Source: a virus | IMG/VR virus record: IMGVR_UViG_3300049911_000215 | Location: 1 to 41,358 of that record | Length of the DNA stretch: 41,358 nt | Reading direction: 5' to 3' (one strand) | Shown: positions 15,107-39,363 of the stretch, piece after piece | How positions within the stretch are numbered: position 1 is the first letter of the stretch | Layout: every line of letters begins with the position of its first letter | Translations under genes and position numbers: made by a program | The notes under the pieces: model-generated | Told to the model about the DNA's origin: nothing | The model's database searches: none | Seen by the model: only the letters and a program-made list of their open reading frames with translations

Positions 15107-15694
15107 ATGAAAATCGCTGGATTCGACGGAGACACATTCCGCGAGCAGGGAGAGGTCACTATCGCCCGGACGGATGGCCGGATAGTGACTCTCAAACTCA
15201 AGGCCCTACCGCTGGGCTTTGAACAGACCATCGCAGAGAGAATACCTGCGCCGTCCCCGCCGATAGGGGGCGCCCTCTACGGCAAGGACGGGAAACCCAT
15301 CAAGGACCCGCAGACCGGGAAGATTGTCCCCTGGTTCAACGAGAAAGAGCCCGCCTTCATCAAAGCCCAGGCCGAGGCGAATCGCCTTGAGATGGCGGCA
15401 ATGATCCACATGGCGGTCGAGGGAGACGAGAATATCCGGTTTGACACGCCGTGGACCTGCCAGGTAACGTCTGACCCGAAAGAGTGGCGGACGTTCTACG
15501 AAGGGATATTCCGGGAACTCCGCGACTTCGGCTTCTCGCCAGGGGACATGCTGACAGTGGTGGAGGAGATGATGCGCCTCAGTCGGCTTGACCCAGCAAG
15601 CATCGAGGAGGCGAAAAAGGGTTTTTTGCGAGCGGTTCCGGCGGAGGAGAGCGCAGTCAACTCTACTGGATTTTCCGAGTCTGCGAGAGACTGA
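15107..15694 (+). CDS. Tail assembly chaperone, unshifted (G-type) product
   Basis: A 195-aa protein made by normal translation. The N-terminal part is beta-like (VTIARTDGRIVTLKLKALP, as in many G-type chaperones), the middle is helical and charged, and the C-terminus is a short tail (AVPAEESAVNSTGFSESARD) that would be lost on frameshifting. Such proteins bind the tape measure during tail assembly and are absent from the virion. It lies between the tail tube and tape measure genes. The ribosome site GAGGAG precedes the ATG. Confidence 0.75.
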   Translation: MKIAGFDGDTFREQGEVTIARTDGRIVTLKLKALPLGFEQTIAERIPAPSPPIGGALYGKDGKPIKDPQTGKIVPWFNEKEPAFIKAQAEANRLEMAAMIHMAVEGDENIRFDTPWTCQVTSDPKEWRTFYEGIFRELRDFGFSPGDMLTVVEEMMRLSRLDPASIEEAKKGFLRAVPAEESAVNSTGFSESARD

Positions 15695-25253: not shown

Positions 25254-26131
25254 GAAAGGTTGCGGCGGTATTCTCCGGCGGCGGAGCGAAGATCGGGTTC
25301 CACAACGGGGCAAAAGACTATCTCATGCAGAAACTCGGTTATCGTTTTGACGTGGTTGCGGGCGTCTCTGCAGGTGCCCTCGTGGCGGCAATGGTGGCTC
25401 AGGAGAAGGGGGATTTGCTGACAGAGATATGCGAAGGGCTGAGCAATGAAGACGTCTATACGGGCAGCCTCAACGCCTGGAGGTTGTTCAGGATCGCCCT
25501 TGGCGCAGACAGTATCTTCGGGAACAAACCCTTACAGAAACTCATTGCCGACAATGTGGACGTTTCGCAGTTCAAAATCCCGTGCATCATCGGCGCCGTT
25601 GACCTCGTGGACGGAGAATATGGAACATTCTCGCCGCAGGAAATCTTTTTCAAACAAGCCCTTCTCGCCTCGACCGCGATCCCCGTTGTGTGGCCCCCCG
25701 TGAAATTCCTTGCCGGGCAGTGGGTGGACGGCGGCGTTCGCAACATCTCGCCTATTGCCGATGTGCTCTGGTACGAGCCGGACGAGGTTGTGATTGTCAA
25801 CTGCTCAAGCCGGGAGCCAATGCCAGCGGCGGGGTCCCTCAACAACGGCGTGAAAATTGGAATGCGGGCGCTGGACATCGCCTGCCAGGAAATCTTCGAG
25901 AATGACGTGGAAACCTTTTTGCGGATGAACCGCCTGGTGGAGGAGGCGGCCGCGGCTGGGGTGACTCTCCACCATAGCGACGGCCACCCCTATAAATGCT
26001 ACCAGTGCCTCGTGATCGAACCGACGGAGGACTTGGGCCCAACGTTAGAGTTCTCGCCGGAGTTGAATCGGCGGAGATATGAGCATGGGTGGCAAAGGGC
26101 GAAGGAGGTCTGCGATGCCGCTGTCGCTTGA
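25250..26131 (+). CDS. Patatin-like phospholipase
   Basis: A 293-aa protein with all hallmarks of bacterial patatins: an oxyanion loop SGGGAK (residues 9-14), the nucleophile elbow GVSAG (38-42, Ser40) and the catalytic Asp in WVDGG (Asp160). These enzymes hydrolyse acyl ester bonds of membrane phospholipids through a Ser-Asp dyad and are used by bacteria as effectors or anti-phage nucleases' partners. It has no signal peptide or membrane helix and would act from the cytoplasm on the inner leaflet. GTG start, GTGA overlap with the small gene upstream. It overlaps the methyltransferase by 17 nt. Its place two genes after the holin-like gene suggests lysis or membrane damage, but an accessory defence role is equally possible. 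Confidence 0.88.
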   Translation: MRKVAAVFSGGGAKIGFHNGAKDYLMQKLGYRFDVVAGVSAGALVAAMVAQEKGDLLTEICEGLSNEDVYTGSLNAWRLFRIALGADSIFGNKPLQKLIADNVDVSQFKIPCIIGAVDLVDGEYGTFSPQEIFFKQALLASTAIPVVWPPVKFLAGQWVDGGVRNISPIADVLWYEPDEVVIVNCSSREPMPAAGSLNNGVKIGMRALDIACQEIFENDVETFLRMNRLVEEAAAAGVTLHHSDGHPYKCYQCLVIEPTEDLGPTLEFSPELNRRRYEHGWQRAKEVCDAAVA

Positions 26132-27566
26132 CCAGATAATCTGCGGCGACTGCCTTGAGGTTATGGCGGGCATGGAGGAGAACTCCGTTGATAGCATCAT
26201 TACTGACCCGCCTTATGGTTTTGCCTTTATGGGAAAGGAATGGGATACTTTTGCGCCGGAATATATTGAAAGACATCGAGATGAGCGACGATATGCAAAG
26301 GGAAAGGCTACAGGAAGTCCAGCAAAAACTGCTGGAACTTATGACCAGTCTATGGAAGGGCATATCAAGTTCTACGATGCAATGATTCCCTGGGCGAAGG
26401 CCGCTCTCCGCGTGGCCAAGCCGGGGGCCATGCTTCTTGCCTTTGGCGGAACCCGTACCCATCATCGCCTCATGTGCGCAATCGAGGACGCGGGATGGGA
26501 GATTAGGGATATCCTGATGTGGCTACACGGGCAGGGATTCCCCAAGAGCCTGAATCACTTTTGGCCAGGTTATGGCACAGCTCTCAAACCCGCCTTCGAG
26601 CCTATCGTGCTGGCGATGAAACCGCTGGACGGGACGTTCGCGCAGAACGCAGAGAAATGGGGCGTCGCGGGGCTGTGGATTGAGGGGGGAAGAATCAATT
26701 ACTCAGGCGAAGTCAAGAGAACAACAAGGATGTCAGATGAGAAAGATTTTCATATAAACCCTTCTGGCTGGCCTGAGTGTTCTCGTCCTGCAAATAGGCT
26801 ATCAACTCCTCCATCCTCCGGTCGCTGGCCTGCGAACGTGCTGCTGGGGCACCACGAGGAGTGCGTGTGCGTGGGGGAAAAAGAAATTCATAGCAAAGAC
26901 GGATATAGCCCAATTGATTTCAGACCAACTGGGAAACAAGGGGCGGTGGCGGTGACGAGGAACGTGAAACGGGGCATACATTTCGGCGGGCCCGACGGCA
27001 CGGAGACCGTTCCCGACTGGCGATGCCATCCCGACTGCCCCGTAAGGTTGCTCGATGAGATGAGCGGGGAGTTAACAAGCGGAGCGATACTGCCACATTA
27101 TCACAATCGTGGTGGACGTCCGCCCATAGGTACTTTTGAAATCCGAGACAGAAGCGGGGAACATAACATCCCTGCGAGCTCCGGCGGCGCATCCCGCTTC
27201 TTCTACTGCGGCAAGGCGCCATCCGGCGAGCGCTTCTTTCTCTGCCGCGACTGCGATGCCGTGTTTCCTGCCAAGCAACGCGAGGCCCATTCTCACGGAA
27301 AAGACGGGAAAGAAGCCTGGAGTCACCTTGTCTATCATCCGACACAGAAACCCCTTCACCTGATGGAATATCTCTGTCGGCTGACCAAGACGCCGACGGG
27401 CGGGATCGTCCTGGACCCGTTCGCGGGCACGGGCACAACGTGTCTTGCGGCTCGCAACGTGGGGCGGCCTTTTATCGGGATAGAAAAGGACACTGAGTAT
27501 TGCCGGATCGACGAGCATCGGCTATCCCTGCGGGAACATCAACTCCAATTCGCGGAGGCCCCGTGA
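26115..27566 (+). CDS. DNA methyltransferase (N6-adenine or N4-cytosine)
   Basis: The start at the ATG 5 nt after GGAGG is preferred over an in-frame ATG 36 nt upstream, giving 483 aa. The catalytic motif DPPY (31-34) precedes the AdoMet-binding DPFAGTGTT (434-442), an order typical of the beta class; YHPTQKPLHLMEYLCRLT is the usual region before motif I. GGASRFFYCGKAPSGE is shared by many phage methyltransferases. No restriction nuclease is next to it, so it probably protects phage DNA from host restriction. A Cys-rich insert (FLCRDCDAVF) is seen near 370. Base composition alternates between AT-rich and GC-rich blocks along the gene, suggesting recombination in its variable parts. Confidence 0.88.
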   Translation: MPLSLDQIICGDCLEVMAGMEENSVDSIITDPPYGFAFMGKEWDTFAPEYIERHRDERRYAKGKATGSPAKTAGTYDQSMEGHIKFYDAMIPWAKAALRVAKPGAMLLAFGGTRTHHRLMCAIEDAGWEIRDILMWLHGQGFPKSLNHFWPGYGTALKPAFEPIVLAMKPLDGTFAQNAEKWGVAGLWIEGGRINYSGEVKRTTRMSDEKDFHINPSGWPECSRPANRLSTPPSSGRWPANVLLGHHEECVCVGEKEIHSKDGYSPIDFRPTGKQGAVAVTRNVKRGIHFGGPDGTETVPDWRCHPDCPVRLLDEMSGELTSGAILPHYHNRGGRPPIGTFEIRDRSGEHNIPASSGGASRFFYCGKAPSGERFFLCRDCDAVFPAKQREAHSHGKDGKEAWSHLVYHPTQKPLHLMEYLCRLTKTPTGGIVLDPFAGTGTTCLAARNVGRPFIGIEKDTEYCRIDEHRLSLREHQLQFAEAP

Positions 27567-27784: not shown

Positions 27785-28170
27785 AAAAGATACTGCTACT
27801 CATTCTTCTGGCGAGCGGTCTCCTCGCGGGCTGCAACGGGGGGCCGGAGCCCAAGCCAGACATAGACTATCCCTGGGAGCAGTTCATCAGGGAAGTCGAG
27901 GAATTTGAAAAGTGGTTCCCCGAAGGTGCGGACTTCGGGTTCTCCTATGGCAAGGTGACTGCGACCGGGCAGGTGGAGTTCAAGCATCCGCCGGAGACAT
28001 GGGAGAGTTTGACGTTGAGCACCACAACGACCGGGCAATGGGAACGGGTAATGGAGAAGACGACGCTTGCGCCAGAGACCTTTTACGCGGCGGAGCCGGA
28101 TGGCGTGTGGGTACTGACAACCTATTCAGGGCAAGGCGTGTTCTGCGCCTGGCTTGAGGAGGGCAAGTAA
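27781..28170 (+). CDS. Lipoprotein, unknown function
   Basis: The chosen start in the ATGA overlap gives a 129-aa protein with a classic lipoprotein signal: MKKILLLILLASGLLAGC (lipobox LAGC, Cys18), then GGPEPKP linker. The mature part has no known family (YPWEQFIREVEEFEKWFPEG, TTTTGQWERVMEKTTL). A longer start would hide the signal. Phage lipoproteins can act as superinfection exclusion proteins or as outer spanin subunits; the length is large for an Rz1-type spanin. Its stop shares a base with the ATG of the papain-like gene (TAATG). Confidence 0.7.
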   Translation: MKKILLLILLASGLLAGCNGGPEPKPDIDYPWEQFIREVEEFEKWFPEGADFGFSYGKVTATGQVEFKHPPETWESLTLSTTTTGQWERVMEKTTLAPETFYAAEPDGVWVLTTYSGQGVFCAWLEEGK

Positions 28171-28997
28171 TGACATCATATCTCAAGAGCATCAAGAACG
28201 AAGCAGACCTTCGGGATAACCTCAAACGCTTCGGCCTACGGCCTGACAGACCGGATCGCCACCGCTTTCATGCGCCCCGGATAACGGCAGACTTGCCGGG
28301 ATCCGCAGACCATCAGGACCTTGTCGGCTGGGTGCTCGACCAGGGCAGTGAGGGCTCCTGCGGCGGGCACATGCAGTGCAAACTCAGCAGCGTCCTCGAA
28401 ACGTCCCTGGGTGAGATTATGCCGCCGAAGGACTTTTCAGCACGCTACGCCTACGACCTGGCGAAGATTGCCGATGACCCGGAAGGACTTGCTGGCGAGG
28501 AGTATCTTGAGCAGTCAGGCACGACGTTGGCAGCTCTCGCATGGGTAGCGCGACGGCTTGGGGCATTGCCGGAAGGCTACTGGCCTTATGCCCCCGGCGA
28601 GGTGGACCCGAAGACGCTGTGGGAGAATGAGGAGTTGAAGGAACATGCGAAACCGTTTCGCGTCAGCGCCTACTACGATTTGACCAGAGGGCAGAACGCC
28701 GCGGCGGAAATTGACATTCTGAGGAACATCAAGGCGGCCATCGTGGAGACCGGGGCTTGCGGCCTGGGCCTTCTCATTTCCTATGGTTGGCTTGATACTC
28801 CCGCGAGCGGGATCATCCCCGAGAGCGAATCACAGGCGGGCGGGCACGCGGTGCTGTGCTGCGGGTATGATGACAAGACGCAGATGTTGACTCTGTTGAA
28901 CTCCTGGGGGGCGGGCTGGGGCAGGTCGGGTTTGGGATTTTATCGGTACGAATACCTGGCGAAGCATCTTCTCGGAGCTTACAGAGAGGAACGCTGA
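28170..28997 (+). CDS. Papain-like (C1A-type) cysteine protease
   Basis: A 275-aa protein with the full catalytic set of papain enzymes in order: oxyanion Gln58 in VLDQGSEGSCGGH, nucleophile Cys64, His226 in GGHAVLCCGYDD and Asn244 in LLNSWGAGWG. There is no signal peptide and no long N-terminal inhibitory propeptide; the first 50 residues may serve as a short one. C1-type proteases cut proteins; phage copies are rare. It is translationally coupled to the lipoprotein gene (TAATG, with GAGGAGG as ribosome site), so the two may work together. Possible roles are lysis, inactivation of a host protein or virion entry. It is the last rightward gene before the lysogeny operon. Confidence 0.85.
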   Translation: MTSYLKSIKNEADLRDNLKRFGLRPDRPDRHRFHAPRITADLPGSADHQDLVGWVLDQGSEGSCGGHMQCKLSSVLETSLGEIMPPKDFSARYAYDLAKIADDPEGLAGEEYLEQSGTTLAALAWVARRLGALPEGYWPYAPGEVDPKTLWENEELKEHAKPFRVSAYYDLTRGQNAAAEIDILRNIKAAIVETGACGLGLLISYGWLDTPASGIIPESESQAGGHAVLCCGYDDKTQMLTLLNSWGAGWGRSGLGFYRYEYLAKHLLGAYREER

Positions 28998-29135: not shown

Positions 29136-29588
29136 TCACTTCGCTGCGGGCTTTTTCTTTGCGATGAAAGGACGAAGTTCCACGCCGCACTCGCGGCAGT
29201 AGCGTTCATCTTTCCCTGTGTGAATCTTCTGGCAGATGGGGCACTCCATTGCGATCGGATGAGAGCTGTCGGTTTTCTCCTTGAGGAAATCCTGAAACCA
29301 GGCGAGGCGATGGTCAATCGAGGCGAGTTTATCGTGCGATTTCCGTGTCCATTCCTTGATTGCGAAGACGATGAAGGGCAGGATGAAAAGAAGGATAGCC
29401 CAAGCAATCAGGAAAACGAGAAGAGGAGTCCCGAGAAGGCCGGAGACAGAATCTCCGAAGGATTCGCCATACTCAAGCGGTCTGTCAAGAATCCGAATCA
29501 AAATTGCGGATACGACTCCGGCAATGATGACAGCCAGAATGATCTTCGCTATCTGATTAGCGATTCCCTGGATGACTTCGTCTTTCAT
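29136..29588 (-). CDS. Two-helix membrane protein with zinc ribbon (exclusion candidate)
   Basis: A 150-aa protein with membrane helices at about 13-34 (IAKIILAVIIAGVVSAILI) and 53-77 (GTPLLVFLIAWAILLFILPF), then a cytosolic tail with a short coiled coil and a zinc ribbon CPICQ-11-CRECG (Cys116, 119, 131, 134). It is coupled to the repressor gene by an ATGA overlap and so should be expressed in the lysogen. In other temperate phages this position holds superinfection exclusion or lysogenic conversion genes. The function is inferred only. The C-terminus is Lys/Ala-rich (AKKKPAAK). Confidence 0.7.
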   Translation of the reverse strand: MKDEVIQGIANQIAKIILAVIIAGVVSAILIRILDRPLEYGESFGDSVSGLLGTPLLVFLIAWAILLFILPFIVFAIKEWTRKSHDKLASIDHRLAWFQDFLKEKTDSSHPIAMECPICQKIHTGKDERYCRECGVELRPFIAKKKPAAK

Positions 29589-30022
29589 TTTCCCGTTTCC
29601 TCCTTCTCGTTGAGTTTCCTGTCCTGAGTCCGCCTATGCTCGATGATGACGCGGCATAGTTCATGGCAAAGACTCTGCACTTCTTCGGGCACGTTCGCAA
29701 GAAAAAGGCGCGAACCGTATTCTGCGGAGTCCTCTGGGGCAACAGATGTCATTGATGAGTCGAGAACATAATCTGGTGGAAGCAACCCGGTTTCTGATAG
29801 GAACCGTTCCAAAGACATGCGGAAATATTTCGCCATTTTGCAGCAGGTCTCGATCCGTGGTTGTCTTGGTTTCTTGCCGGAAAGAAGGCCGCTGAAATGC
29901 TCGCGCGATAAGCCAAGACGCTCGGCAAAAGCTTTTCTCGTTAGCCGGATACTCCCAGCTCTTGCTTCAGCAAATTTCCGTTCCAGGAAGGCTTGAAGTA
30001 GGTTTTCGCAGTTGCCTTTCAT
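29585..30022 (-). CDS. Phage repressor (CI-like, Xre-type helix-turn-helix)
   Basis: A 145-aa protein with an N-terminal helix-turn-helix (about 26-75: RLTRKAFAERLGLSREHFSG, then LLSGKKPRQPRIETCC). The start at MKGNCENLL is chosen; a TTG further upstream has no ribosome site. No LexA-type Ser/Lys protease domain is seen in the C-terminal half, so induction would not be by RecA-stimulated self-cleavage. It is divergent from the Cro-like gene and separated by the promoter/operator. Upstream on its strand, TGGTACGAT resembles an extended -10 close to the ATG, so a short or absent leader as in lambda cI is possible. It is coupled to the membrane protein gene. Confidence 0.8.
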   Translation of the reverse strand: MKGNCENLLQAFLERKFAEARAGSIRLTRKAFAERLGLSREHFSGLLSGKKPRQPRIETCCKMAKYFRMSLERFLSETGLLPPDYVLDSSMTSVAPEDSAEYGSRLFLANVPEEVQSLCHELCRVIIEHRRTQDRKLNEKEETGK

Positions 30023-30091
30023 GTTGCCCAATATCGTACCATGTTGTTTTGAGGCAATAAAGACAGAACAAAAAAAAGACAAAGAAATATG

Positions 30092-30120
30092 TTGACAAGT
30101 TTCCGCAACGGAAATATACT
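30092..30120 (+). promoter_or_regulatory. Rightward early promoter with palindromic operator in its spacer
   Basis: A perfect -35 box TTGACA (30092-30097), a 17-nt spacer and -10 box TATACT (30115-30120). The spacer holds TTTCCGCAACGGAAA (30100-30114), a perfect 6-bp inverted repeat with a 3-nt centre, ending at the -10 box. A repressor bound here would block RNA polymerase. Start of transcription is expected near 30127, 24 nt before the Cro-like ATG. Confidence 0.85.
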
Positions 30121-30150: not shown

Positions 30151-30543
30151 ATGAAGGTTCAGTGGTACATCCGAACACAGGCTTTTTTGACCCTCCTGGG
30201 CATCCGGGGGCTGAACCAAACCGACCTTGCTGGTTTGACGAAAATCCATTCCAGCGACCTTTCCCTATTCATTAACCGTGAGAAATCCATCGGCGTCGGA
30301 AGAATGAGCCGGATCAAGTCCCGGCTCGGAATCTCCGATGAAGCCTTACTTGATTTTTTTGAACCTGTTGGCGGTGACGAATCACCGTTTCGGAAAAACG
30401 CTTACGGAAACGGCTCTGCCTTCGCTCCAGGCGAGCGACCTATCCCCGGCGAGGGTGAAGACACCCCTCGGCCCGAGATCGCAGTTCCTGGGGCAGTTTC
30501 GGCGGGGAGAACGGACAACACCATCTCAGGATGCAATTCCTGA
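30151..30543 (+). CDS. Cro-like early regulator
   Basis: A 130-aa protein and first gene of the rightward early operon. Residues about 20-70 form a helix-turn-helix (LNQTDLAGLTKIHSSDLSLF, then MSRIKSRLGISDEALLDFF). The C-terminal 55 residues are Gly/Pro-rich and probably disordered. It is divergent to the repressor, as Cro is in lambdoid phages, so it likely represses the lysogeny operon. The ribosome site is GAGGAAG. Within the gene, CCGTTT and AAACGG with two CGGAAA half-sites (30385-30413) echo the operator, but spacing differs. Confidence 0.75.
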   Translation: MKVQWYIRTQAFLTLLGIRGLNQTDLAGLTKIHSSDLSLFINREKSIGVGRMSRIKSRLGISDEALLDFFEPVGGDESPFRKNAYGNGSAFAPGERPIPGEGEDTPRPEIAVPGAVSAGRTDNTISGCNS

Positions 30544-30747: not shown

Positions 30748-30996
30748 ATGACAGAGAAGAACATCAACGGCACGGTTCACGAGACGGGGCCGGACCCGGA
30801 GCAGATCGAGGAGGTGGAGACAACCAAACCCGAAACAATCTATTTCGTGGTCGTCTATAGAGCCGACGAACATGGCCAGCGAGAAGAGAAAATTGACGGA
30901 GCATATCGCAACCTAAAAACCGCTCAGGAACGAGCAACGTTCTTTCGGGACATGAGTGCAAATGTGGAGATTTTGGATGCGCCGATAAAGGGTTGA
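30748..30996 (+). CDS. Small acidic protein, unknown
   Basis: An 82-aa protein with AGGAGG ribosome site. The N-terminal third is acidic and likely flexible (GPDPEQIEEVETTKPE); the rest has a strand-helix pattern (IYFVVVYRADEHGQREEK, then NLKTAQERATFFRDM). Its stop is followed by a long gene-free stretch. Function unknown. Confidence 0.6.
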   Translation: MTEKNINGTVHETGPDPEQIEEVETTKPETIYFVVVYRADEHGQREEKIDGAYRNLKTAQERATFFRDMSANVEILDAPIKG

Positions 30997-31007
30997 GCCT
31001 CCAGCGA

Positions 31008-31692
31008 CGGGGCCCTACGGGGCTCCGAACTGGATGCTTGACTCCGGTTGCGTTGCTGCGACAAGCACCGAGTATCAGGCAATAGGAGTAGCCCTGGCGA
31101 TCACGAAATTAGAGCCACCTGCACCGTTCGCACAGCGGCGGCCCGGATGGCACGCCAGGGGTTGAAAATGCGTGGCCTGACGGCAGACGCTGGACAAGTA
31201 ATATAAAAAAGAAGACCCCGACTAGTAACATGCGGGGGCGCCGTTCGGAGTTAGGCAGCGAGGGAATCCGAGTTTCAGGCCACGCAGGAATACAAGGTGG
31301 GCGTAACTCAGATGCCCGTGAGCCGAGTAAGTGCGGCGGAAAAAAGAGCACCGGCGTTGGAGGGCGAACTATCTCCACAATCGGAGGTCGCGGTCTGGCA
31401 AGCCGCCGCCCGCCGCAACTCGTAAGCAACGTTTACAAGTTCAACTGAATACATGCTGCCTCGCCGAGGTGGGGCCTGTAACGTCTGAAAAAGACACAAC
31501 GCACAGGCAAACAGAGGTGGCTCAGCATACAGTACCGTCTCGCAAGCGGGCTGTGTAGTTCCTTGGTGAACGTTCTCCAGTAGGACACGTTGAGACCAGA
31601 GCTGGCCATGGCAGTGATGGGAAGAAGGCGAGGCGGCAGAGATAACAAGGGCAGGCGTCGGCACTCACAGGCTCGGCGAGAAACAGACGCGC
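31008..31692 (+). ncRNA. Candidate large structured RNA in a 723-bp gene-free region
   Basis: From 30997 to 31719 no frame looks coding, although almost every other gap in the window is under 100 bp. The stretch is full of complementary segments: an 8-bp hairpin with UACG tetraloop (31008-31027); CCCTGGCG/CGCCAGGG (31092-31099 with 31153-31160); a perfect 12-bp stem (31169-31180 with 31275-31286); a 25-nt hairpin at 31417-31441 whose loop GCAACG can pair with CGTTGC at 31051-31056; a possible 8-bp link between 31135-31142 and 31402-31409; and GCGTC/GACGC near the 3' end (31655-31690). It should be transcribed from the early promoter. Size and complexity recall large phage RNAs such as GOLLD or ROOL, but I cannot match it to either. 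No group I or II intron core was recognised. Confidence 0.5.
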
Positions 31693-31719
31693 CCTCGAAA
31701 TAGAGTCAGGAGGGAAACA

Positions 31720-32070
31720 GTGAACCACGACAGTCAACCTCAAATGGAATGCAGCGCGGAGGAGCCTCTTTCTTCTCAACAGGTGAACCCCTCCTGCGAG
31801 GTGTCCTCCGCCGGAATCAATCGAGGAGGCGGGGCCCCGGCCCATCCGTCCTACCCCCACGGAAAAGGCCACCAACAACCCGCCCTCTCGTCTATTAGCG
31901 GGGCTCCCGAGGGTTCTCAGAAAATGGAAGAAGCTGAAGTGGCAAGGGAGCCCCGCGTTCTTTCTCTCGGCGAGGCGCTGCATCGCGCTCTGAATCAAGC
32001 CTCGGAACTGGACCAGGATGTTGAACTCAACAACTGCTGGTATGCGGCGACGTTTGGAATAGTCGAATAG
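31720..32070 (+). CDS. Small protein with disordered N-terminus, unknown
   Basis: A 116-aa protein beginning at GTG with AGGAGGG 6 nt upstream. Residues 1-68 are rich in Ser, Pro, Gly and Gln and probably disordered; residues 70-116 look folded (PRVLSLGEALHRALNQASEL, then NNCWYAATFGIVE). The N-terminal coding DNA has GC-rich self-complementary patches, so the structured RNA may extend into this gene. Function unknown. Confidence 0.5.
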   Translation: MNHDSQPQMECSAEEPLSSQQVNPSCEVSSAGINRGGGAPAHPSYPHGKGHQQPALSSISGAPEGSQKMEEAEVAREPRVLSLGEALHRALNQASELDQDVELNNCWYAATFGIVE

Positions 32071-32088
32071 GAGTTGTAGGGTGATAGC

Positions 32089-32599: not shown

Positions 32600-32962
32600 A
32601 TGACCGAGGAATCGAAAAACGTCATCTGCTCCGGCTGCGGCGAGCAGGTATTAGTCGAGGCGAACGGGCAGAAGGATGATACATGCGCCTGCGATCCGGT
32701 GTGCATTGTGTGCAGGCGGCAGTTCAAACCGTGGACGATGGAAGGGGTTGCAGGAATCACTGCGATTGAACGAAACGTTTGTGAGGATTGTTTGGATGCC
32801 GCCATGCAAGAAACCTGCGGACGGCTGTTCTATTGGCTAACTGATGACCTTTCTATTGCGCCGTCGCTCCAAAAGGATGAGAGATGGAAGCACGCAAGAC
32901 ACTCAGCGTTGATCCTATTTCGGCTTGATGTGCATGAAAAACTCGTGCGAGATAACCGATAA
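32600..32962 (+). CDS. Zinc-finger-like small protein
   Basis: A 120-aa protein with GGAGG ribosome site. The N-terminal half has paired Cys motifs: ICSGCGEQ, DTCACDPVCIVCRRQF and NVCEDCLDAA, which fit one or two zinc-binding knuckles. The C-terminal half is helical. The gene extends 22 nt past no neighbour's start; the ATPase gene begins 22 nt after its stop. A nucleic acid-related role is possible. Confidence 0.6.
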   Translation: MTEESKNVICSGCGEQVLVEANGQKDDTCACDPVCIVCRRQFKPWTMEGVAGITAIERNVCEDCLDAAMQETCGRLFYWLTDDLSIAPSLQKDERWKHARHSALILFRLDVHEKLVRDNR

Positions 32963-32984
32963 CAACAAAGGAAAGGAGAAGGAC

Positions 32985-34223
32985 GTGAGAATCATTCAAC
33001 TGACTGCATCGAACGTCAAGCGGCTCAAGGCCATTGACATTACCCCGGAGGGGGACATCGTGGAGATCGCCGGACGGAATGACCAGGGCAAGACTTCTGT
33101 TCTGGACTCAATCTGGTGGGCGCTTGGCGGCAAACGAGCGATCCAACGGTCGCCGGTGAGAGAGGGCGAGGAGCAGGCCGAGGTCGTGATTGACCTCGGC
33201 GACATTATGGTCAAACGAAGCTGGGACACTTCCGGGGACACGAAACTGAAAGTCTTCGCGGCGAATGGCGCAGAGCAGACGAGTCCGCAGAGTATCCTCG
33301 ACAATCTGGTCGGGCGGCTGGCATTCGACCCGCTCGAGTTCGCCAGAATGGACGCGAGGACCCAGCGGGACATGCTTCTGCGAATCGTTGGCCTCGAGGA
33401 CAATCTCCTCGCATTGCAAGTCGAGCGAGAAGGCTTGACGGAGAAACGCAAGGACGCCGGGAAAGACGTGAAACGGCTGGAAATGGAGTTCGCGTCTCTT
33501 GAGGCGGTGCCAAAAGATACCCCCAGAACCGAGGTTGACCTGGATGGATTGACGATGGAATTGCAGTCGGCAATGGATGCAAAAGGCGCACTTATCCGGC
33601 AACAAGAGAGTCTCAAGGCAGCCTATGTCGAGCGCGAAAATCTCCAGACGCGACTGAATGTGCTGAATCATTCCATTGAAGAGGCGGAAGTTTTACTCGA
33701 CGGCAAAAAGGTCCCGGATGTTGACGGAATCCGACAGAGGATGGGAGAGGTTCAGGAGCTCAACCGCCTGGTCCGGCAGAGAGTGAGACGGGAGGAAATC
33801 ACAGAGTCTGTGAAAGAGGCTCGGCGGCGGCATGACGTCCTGGACGGGAAAATTCAGGATGTGGACAGGAAAAAAGAAAAGGCCCTTCGGGCAGCCGCAT
33901 TTCCTGTCGAGGGCCTGGGCGTGGATTTCGAGGGCGTGACATTCAACGGGCTGCCCTTCGAGCAAGCATCGAACTCGCAGCAATTGAAGGTTTCGATGGC
34001 CGTGGCGATGGCCATGAACCCGAAACTTCGAGTGCTTCGCATCAACGATGGGAGCCTCCTTGATATGGAGAACATGAAGCTCATTGCGCAGATGGCGGCG
34101 GAGTATGACTATCAGGTGTGGGTTGAGAGGGTCGAGCCGTCATCGGAGAGTGCAGTCATCATCGAAGACGGAACCGTGAAAGGGAAAGGAGAGCAGTCAG
34201 ATGGCAGAACAGAAAGCAAGTAA
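32985..34223 (+). CDS. SMC/Rad50-like ATPase
   Basis: The GTG start after GGAAAGGAGAAGG is chosen, because the family begins exactly there (MRIIQLTASNVKRLKAIDI); an upstream ATG adds an unrelated leader. Of 412 aa, the head has Walker A GRNDQGKTS (30-38), the middle (about 145-315) is a coiled coil, and the C-terminal head has a degenerate signature/Walker B region (QASNSQQLKVSMAVAMA, then LRVLRINDGSLLD). This plan fits short Rad50/SbcC-like or RecN-like ATPases that handle DNA ends. It is followed, with a 23-nt overlap, by the annealing protein gene, so the two likely form a phage recombination module. Confidence 0.8.
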   Translation: MRIIQLTASNVKRLKAIDITPEGDIVEIAGRNDQGKTSVLDSIWWALGGKRAIQRSPVREGEEQAEVVIDLGDIMVKRSWDTSGDTKLKVFAANGAEQTSPQSILDNLVGRLAFDPLEFARMDARTQRDMLLRIVGLEDNLLALQVEREGLTEKRKDAGKDVKRLEMEFASLEAVPKDTPRTEVDLDGLTMELQSAMDAKGALIRQQESLKAAYVERENLQTRLNVLNHSIEEAEVLLDGKKVPDVDGIRQRMGEVQELNRLVRQRVRREEITESVKEARRRHDVLDGKIQDVDRKKEKALRAAAFPVEGLGVDFEGVTFNGLPFEQASNSQQLKVSMAVAMAMNPKLRVLRINDGSLLDMENMKLIAQMAAEYDYQVWVERVEPSSESAVIIEDGTVKGKGEQSDGRTESK

Positions 34224-38337: not shown

Positions 38338-38623
38338 GGATATTCTGTCGGCGGCGAAATGGAGGCTGGAAGGACTTCGTGAAACCTGCCTTGCCCTCTG
38401 GCACATGCAGGAGGGTCTGGTGACACTCAGGGACAAACTGCAAAAAAGGGTCCGCGAGCTTGAGGCGGCACTGTCGAAGGCGTTGGCGAAGACTCAGTGC
38501 CGAAAACCACAGCAGAGATATGACAAACGCGCGAGACCCATAGTGGGCTGGTTTGACTGCGGCGAGTGCGATACGTGCCTCGCGCGGAAGGAACTGGCAG
38601 TGGCGAAAGGAGAGAAGGCGTGA
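38312..38623 (+). CDS. Coiled-coil protein with C-terminal Cys motif
   Basis: A 103-aa protein. Residues about 15-60 form a coiled coil (LEGLRETCLALWHMQEGLV, then DKLQKRVRELEAALSKAL), and the C-terminal part has FDCGECDTCLARKELAV, a possible metal site. It ends in KGEKA, encoded by the repeated junction sequence. Its stop overlaps the GTG start of the DUF5131 gene. Confidence 0.55.
   Translation: MKLTRKQVEDILSAAKWRLEGLRETCLALWHMQEGLVTLRDKLQKRVRELEAALSKALAKTQCRKPQQRYDKRARPIVGWFDCGECDTCLARKELAVAKGEKA
38605..38623 (+). repeat. Repeated gene junction GAAAGGAGAGAAGGCGTGA, copy 1
   Basis: Exact 19-base sequence found three times, each ending at the stop codon of one gene and containing the ribosome site and GTG start of the next. 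It codes KGEKA and the stop in the upstream frame. This copy joins the coiled-coil gene to DUF5131. Confidence 0.9.
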
Positions 38624-39363
38624 ATAAGACAAAGATTGATTGGTGCGATTACACGTGGAACCCTTTCGTTGGTTGTAGCAACGGCTGCGAGTGGTGCTAC
38701 GCACGGAAAACGGCCAAGCGCTGGGGTGGCACCACGCATTGTGAGAAGTGCAGTCGGTTTGAGTTCCATCTTCACCCGGAACGGATGGATGCTCCGCTGA
38801 AGGTCAAGAAGCCAAGCATCGTATTCCTCGGCAGCATGTGCGATCTGTTCTGTGAGGCAGCCCTGCGATTTTATGAAACCAATGGTCACGGAATGCGCTG
38901 GCCCTATTTTCTGAACGGATCACCGCACCAATTCGTTGTCCTGACGAAACAGCCAGGGAACATTCCGAGGGGCTGGAACGATGACGTGCCGAATCTGTGG
39001 GTCGGGGTGAGCGTGACGCGGGAGCATGAGCAACCGGATTACAAGCGGGCAATGACGCTGCTCGATAGAATCCAGGAACGGCGGATTCTGTGCATTGAGC
39101 CGATGTTGGGGCCTCCCGTAGTGATCTATCCGCTGACGGAGTTTCCCTGGATAATCCTCGGCGGACTGACGGGGGCAAGGTATCCGCACGCATGGGGTGC
39201 GCCCGGGTTGGATGCCGTAGAGAAAATCGTGGATGAAGCGGAACGAGCTGACGTTCCCGTGTTCCTGAAAAAGAACCTCTCGCCGCGTATCCCACTGAGT
39301 TATGTCATGGCTCACAGAGAATACCCGCCGGAACTGGCGGCGGTGAAAGGAGAGAAGGCGTGA
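38620..39363 (+). CDS. DUF5131 (phage Gp37/Gp68-type) radical-SAM-like protein
   Basis: The GTG start in the GTGA overlap is chosen; the family begins MNKTKIDWCDYTWNPFVGCS, and this match fixes the start. The 247-aa protein has a CX3CX2C cluster (Cys19, Cys23, Cys26 in CSNGCEWCY), the iron-sulfur motif of radical SAM enzymes, followed by FLGSMCDLF, VVLTKQP, LWVGVSVT and ILCIEPMLGPP, all characteristic of this family. The biochemical function is not established in my knowledge; related genes are widespread in phages and mobile elements. The last residues KGEKA come from the repeated junction. Confidence 0.85.
   Translation: MNKTKIDWCDYTWNPFVGCSNGCEWCYARKTAKRWGGTTHCEKCSRFEFHLHPERMDAPLKVKKPSIVFLGSMCDLFCEAALRFYETNGHGMRWPYFLNGSPHQFVVLTKQPGNIPRGWNDDVPNLWVGVSVTREHEQPDYKRAMTLLDRIQERRILCIEPMLGPPVVIYPLTEFPWIILGGLTGARYPHAWGAPGLDAVEKIVDEAERADVPVFLKKNLSPRIPLSYVMAHREYPPELAAVKGEKA
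39345..39363 (+). repeat. Repeated gene junction, copy 2
   Basis: Identical 19 bases joining the DUF5131 gene to the ASCH gene, again supplying ribosome site and GTG. Confidence 0.9.

What the first reader, a model, noticed from the sequence alone, without database searches (positions are those of the whole stretch)
30997..31719. Large structured non-coding region in a tightly packed phage genome
This is the only gap above 300 bp. It contains a 12-bp perfect long-range stem, an 8-bp long-range stem, an 8-bp hairpin closed by a UACG tetraloop, a 25-nt hairpin whose loop can kiss an upstream segment, and more. None of the six frames looks coding. It should be transcribed early, ahead of recombination and replication genes. 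It may be a new large phage RNA, comparable in size to GOLLD or ROOL but not recognised as either, or a divergent ribozyme.
Basis: partly seen in the sequence, partly recalled or inferred. Interest (0 to 1): 0.85.

Follow-up and report, generated by a model that had tools for sequence, protein, structure and literature searches.

The report
Orphan structured gap in phage early operon
A previously unsampled temperate phage carries about 720 bases of apparently untranslated, moderately well-folding sequence early in its lytic operon; it may be a new large phage RNA, but no relative could be found to prove that its structure is conserved.

Summary
It lies about 0.9 kb downstream of a near-consensus sigma-70-like promoter (30092-30120), placed between a CI-like repressor gene (-) and a Cro-like gene (+), so early lytic transcription is a reasonable inference. 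Structure is better than chance, but modestly: full-length fold z about -2.2 (3 of 240 shuffles reach it), 8 perfect stems of 8 bp or more against about 3 expected, and local fold bias on the + strand. A genuine ROOL RNA run the same way gives z -1.3, so a modest z does not count against a large RNA; coding windows elsewhere in this phage fold even better, so z does not prove one either. Nothing in Rfam matches. No homologue turned up in phage, plasmid, IMG/VR or GTDB searches or in about 100 related phage records; the closest non-identical terminase is 49% identical. The covariation test that would decide could therefore not be run. Best reading: a large untranslated structured early RNA, unclassified and not ROOL or GOLLD. 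A functionless or cis-acting spacer remains a serious rival.

The parts
30092..30120 (+). Sigma-70-like early rightward promoter (TTGACA, 17 nt, TATACT; 11 of 12)
   Evidence: lies between the CI-like (-) and Cro-like (+) genes
29585..30082 (-). CI-like HTH repressor gene
   Evidence: PHROG transcriptional regulator families, best E 4.8e-6
30151..30543 (+). Cro-like HTH gene, first gene of the early operon
   Evidence: sequence reads as a helix-turn-helix protein (inference, no PHROG match)
30748..30996 (+). Small protein gene upstream of the gap
   Evidence: codon score 0.342; no PHROG or Pfam match
30997..31719 (+). Untranslated region, putative structured early RNA
31008..31027 (+). 8-pair hairpin with UACG tetraloop
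   Evidence: P 0.98; z -3.4 for 31004-31030 on +
30998..31363 (+). 5' domain closed by a 9-pair stem CCUCCAGCG/CGUUGGAGG
   Evidence: P 0.71
31092..31160 (+). Helix 31092-31099/31153-31160 (8 bp)
   Evidence: P 0.96
31169..31286 (+). 12-bp perfect stem 31169-31180/31275-31286
   Evidence: P 0.76
31392..31673 (+). 3' domain, including helix 31454-31465/31627-31638 (12 pairs, one G-U)
   Evidence: P 0.99 for the 12-pair helix; 31451-31641 z -2.5 on +
31720..32070 (+). Next gene downstream, preceded by a strong Shine-Dalgarno (AGGAGG)
   Evidence: period-3 power 3.4-4.3; codon score weak, -0.02
32925..34223 (+). SbcC/RecF-like AAA ATPase (recombination)
   Evidence: PHROG 1499 E 8.8e-92; Pfam AAA_23

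Best explanation
30997-31719 is an untranslated, structured stretch of the early lytic transcript of an unsampled temperate siphophage. RNA polymerase starting at the promoter near 30092 transcribes it shortly after the CI-like repressor is lifted (inferred). The RNA folds into two successive domains: a 5' domain of about 365 nt closed by a 9-pair stem, and a 3' domain of about 280 nt built on a 12-pair helix (predicted). The most likely role is that of a large stable noncoding RNA, released from the early message by processing and acting in trans as a scaffold or decoy, in the manner one may suppose for ROOL, GOLLD and the ICP1 800-nt RNA, whose functions are themselves unknown. It is not a member of the ROOL or GOLLD families. 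Shown: absence of coding signal, the stems, above-chance folding, the position. Inferred: transcription, processing, stability and function.
For: No coding periodicity or codon bias over the gap, with coding signal on both sides. Excess of long stems. Fold z -2.2 to -2.7 on +, stronger than a genuine ROOL tested the same way (-1.3) and similar to the ICP1 orf-less RNA gap (-2.4). Local fold bias is on the + strand: mean z -1.37 against -0.10 on the - strand and -0.24 for + strand windows of the whole phage. Early promoter. Other phages devote 0.6-1 kb to abundant large noncoding RNAs (PMC7567579, PMC12286853).
Against: No homologue anywhere, so no covariation and no evidence of selection on the fold. 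The z is modest, and two coding windows of the same phage fold better. No promoter-like or terminator-like site of its own was found on the + strand. No tRNA genes are present, unlike many ROOL and GOLLD loci. There is no transcript evidence.
Confidence: 0.4

Rival explanations
1. Ordinary spacer: the remnant of a lost or decayed gene, or acquired filler, that happens to fold because it is G+C-rich. It has no function as an RNA.
For: No homologue and no demonstrable conservation. Significance of the fold is only about 1%, and coding windows of the same phage exceed it.
Against: It is the largest empty stretch in a tightly packed genome. Stem excess and + strand bias. No recognisable protein remnant in the ORFs of the region.
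Confidence: 0.3
2. A cis-acting region of the early message: a long structured leader that sets translation of the 31720 gene, or that keeps RNA polymerase running through the operon (antitermination or protection from Rho).
For: It sits within the early operon in front of a gene with a strong Shine-Dalgarno. No terminator-like site on the + strand between 29900 and 32200. It has more G than C and is structured, unlike a Rho loading site (established knowledge of Rho).
Against: Known phage cis elements of this kind (put, nut) are around 100 nt or less (own knowledge); 723 nt is far more than needed. No matching Rfam cis element.
Confidence: 0.2
3. A DNA element, such as a replication origin or a protein-binding region.
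For: Early region near recombination and replication genes.
Against: No iterons or tandem direct repeats. The features are long-range inverted repeats that make sense in RNA, and the local fold bias is strand-specific.
Confidence: 0.06
4. A divergent self-splicing intron or other ribozyme.
For: Large and structured.
Against: No intron or other ribozyme match in Rfam even at E up to 5. It lies between genes rather than inside one.
Confidence: 0.03

Closest known systems
ROOL RNA (Rfam RF03087)
   Same: Large, phage-borne, of similar length (model 574 positions), ornate predicted fold.
   Different: No match to the ROOL model here although the same search finds ROOL in plasmid pMP118. No neighbouring tRNAs. 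U-poor, G-rich composition.
GOLLD RNA
   Same: Phage-borne, 0.8-kb class, expression rises during lysis (PMC12286853).
   Different: No Rfam match, no tRNA island, and an early-operon rather than tRNA-array location.
ICP1 orf-less ~800-nt RNA between gp139 and gp140
   Same: A gap of about 0.7-1 kb without ORF in a phage lacking tRNAs; similar fold z (-2.4). Reported as the most abundant ICP1 transcript (PMC7567579).
   Different: The ICP1 RNA is seen by RNA-seq, lies at the start of the lysis cluster and its gap is A+T-rich. This one is untested, early-operon and G-rich. Common origin was not tested.
Phage K lncRNAs
   Same: Large phage noncoding transcripts of unknown function (PMC9241854).
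   Different: Those are placed relative to tRNA genes as ROOL and GOLLD are, and are known from RNA-seq.

Membership tests
ROOL (RF03087) | Scores above the Rfam gathering cut-off | tested here: not met
   positive control found
ROOL (RF03087) | Assembles into a homomeric nanocage | not testable with these tools
   needs cryo-EM
GOLLD | Scores above the Rfam gathering cut-off | tested here: not met
   (no GOLLD positive control was run)
GOLLD | Often beside phage tRNAs | tested here: not met
   no tRNA in the window; common but not required
Large phage noncoding RNA (general kind) | Several hundred nt without a coding signal | tested here: met
Large phage noncoding RNA (general kind) | Abundant discrete transcript | not testable with these tools
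   no RNA-seq
Large phage noncoding RNA (general kind) | Secondary structure conserved by covariation | tested here: inconclusive
   no homologue to align
Self-splicing introns and known ribozymes | Match to the family model | tested here: not met

The most novel reading that the evidence does not exclude
A new class of large structured phage RNA, unrelated to ROOL and GOLLD, made in the early lytic phase of a temperate phage from the immunity-region promoter.
Probability: 0.3. Interest if true: 0.7.

Novelty: new member of a known kind. Interest (0 to 1): 0.4.

Why it matters
Large phage RNAs such as ROOL and GOLLD are structurally spectacular but have no known function. One placed just behind the CI/Cro switch of a temperate phage would tie such an RNA to a defined time of infection and to a simple deletion test. 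It would also suggest that orf-less RNAs are more widespread and diverse in phages than Rfam shows.

Tried and rejected
Extension of the RNA past 31719: the whole 1.1-kb fold shows strong helices to 31983, including an 11-bp repeat, but that stretch has period-3 coding signal and 31720-32088 as a whole folds like its shuffles (z -0.6), so I kept it as a gene. A 41-nt match in L023 (window 31565-31605, 78%) is in a coding start and was rejected as chance. Recurrent 15-nt matches around window 31398-31412 are a G+C-rich low-complexity string. Exact-pattern scans: one 21-mer in genome contigs (0 hits) and a 16-mer and a 17-mer in viral contigs (30 and 3 hits, none extending). Single-protein scans with the ATPase and the RecT-like protein found no relatives. 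A covariance model of 31163-31292, built from the one sequence, found only itself in 1.33 Mb of the window and related loci. Fold z as proof of an RNA: rejected, because coding windows exceed it and a real ROOL falls below it. A scan of syntenic loci for low period-3 gaps was uninformative, because low-period-3 runs are common in coding regions too. Failed calls: relatives of a virus record (14), phylum search from L204 (92).

Full report
Setting. The window is a single virus record of 41,358 bases. Terminase, portal, head, tape-measure, integrase and repressor genes show a temperate tailed phage, probably of siphovirus type. The immunity region reads: zinc-ribbon membrane protein 29136-29588 (-), CI-like repressor 29585-30082 (-), promoter TTGACA-17-TATACT at 30092-30120 (+), Cro-like gene 30151-30543 (+), a small gene 30748-30996, the gap 30997-31719, a small gene 31720-32070, then further small genes, an SbcC/RecF-like ATPase 32925-34223 and later a Holliday-junction resolvase and the integrase. 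The gap therefore lies in the early rightward operon, by inference from position.

The gap is real and noncoding. A codon model trained on 17 long genes of this phage gives negative scores in all six frames throughout. Period-3 power is near noise (0.6-1.9) from 30970 to about 31700 and recovers to 3.4-4.3 in the next ORF. This statistic alone is weak, since low-period-3 runs also occur in genes. ORFs inside match neither PHROGs nor Pfam convincingly.

The structure is above chance, modestly. The 12-bp and 8-bp stems are exact. Eight perfect stems of at least 8 bp compare with 3.0 in dinucleotide shuffles (0.7% reach 8), and a 12-bp stem appears in 1.3%. The 723-nt fold has z -2.2 on the + strand (3/240) and -1.9 on the - strand (7/240), and ranks third of 56 windows in the phage. 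Local 180-nt windows favour the + strand (mean -1.37 against -0.10). Most predicted helices have probability above 0.7. The kissing interaction is at most 5 nt.

Yardstick. ROOL was located in plasmid pMP118 by the same search tool. Its own z is -1.3 and its antisense 0.0; the orf-less ICP1 gap gives -2.4. So a modest z is normal for large phage RNAs and is not evidence against one. But two coding windows of this phage score -4.6 and -5.3, so z is not proof either.

Relatives. The gap matches no Rfam family; the few matches listed at relaxed thresholds are at chance level. It has no significant similarity in 50,697 phage or 72,556 plasmid records. Whole-record searches of 48 terminase relatives and 50 ATPase relatives gave only chance matches, and a covariance model of the 12-bp-stem domain found only itself.

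Interpretation. The facts fit a large untranslated early RNA. By its length, lack of ORF and fold statistics it resembles the unclassified ICP1 RNA (PMC7567579) more than ROOL or GOLLD, whose models it fails and whose tRNA neighbourhood it lacks. I put a functional large noncoding RNA at 0.4, a functionless spacer at 0.3, and a cis-acting region of the early message at 0.2. That it is a new class of RNA is possible (0.3) but unproven.

Noticed in passing
15121-15300 (+): Strongest local fold of the whole window (z -5.8), inside coding gene 15107-15694, with a long hairpin around GGTCACTATC...GATAGTGACTCTC.
   Followed up: partly
31898-31908 / 31946-31956: 11-bp perfect inverted repeat inside ORF 31720-32070; hairpin z -3.6 on + and -4.6 on -.
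   Followed up: partly
25936-26658 (+): 723-nt window with z -4.6 across the end of the patatin-like gene and the start of the methyltransferase-like gene.
   Followed up: no
28170-28997 (+): Papain-like C1 peptidase gene in the phage (Pfam E 7.2e-6).
   Followed up: no
38566-39363 (+): DUF5131 protein of unknown role (Pfam E 7e-33).
   Followed up: no
29136-29588 (-): Membrane protein with a C-terminal zinc-ribbon-like pair of CxxC motifs directly downstream of the repressor gene (sequence; weak Pfam matches).
   Followed up: no
L002 1-7663: A 7.7-kb IMG/VR contig with a terminase 100% identical to this phage's, so the phage (or its terminase module) was assembled more than once.
   Followed up: no
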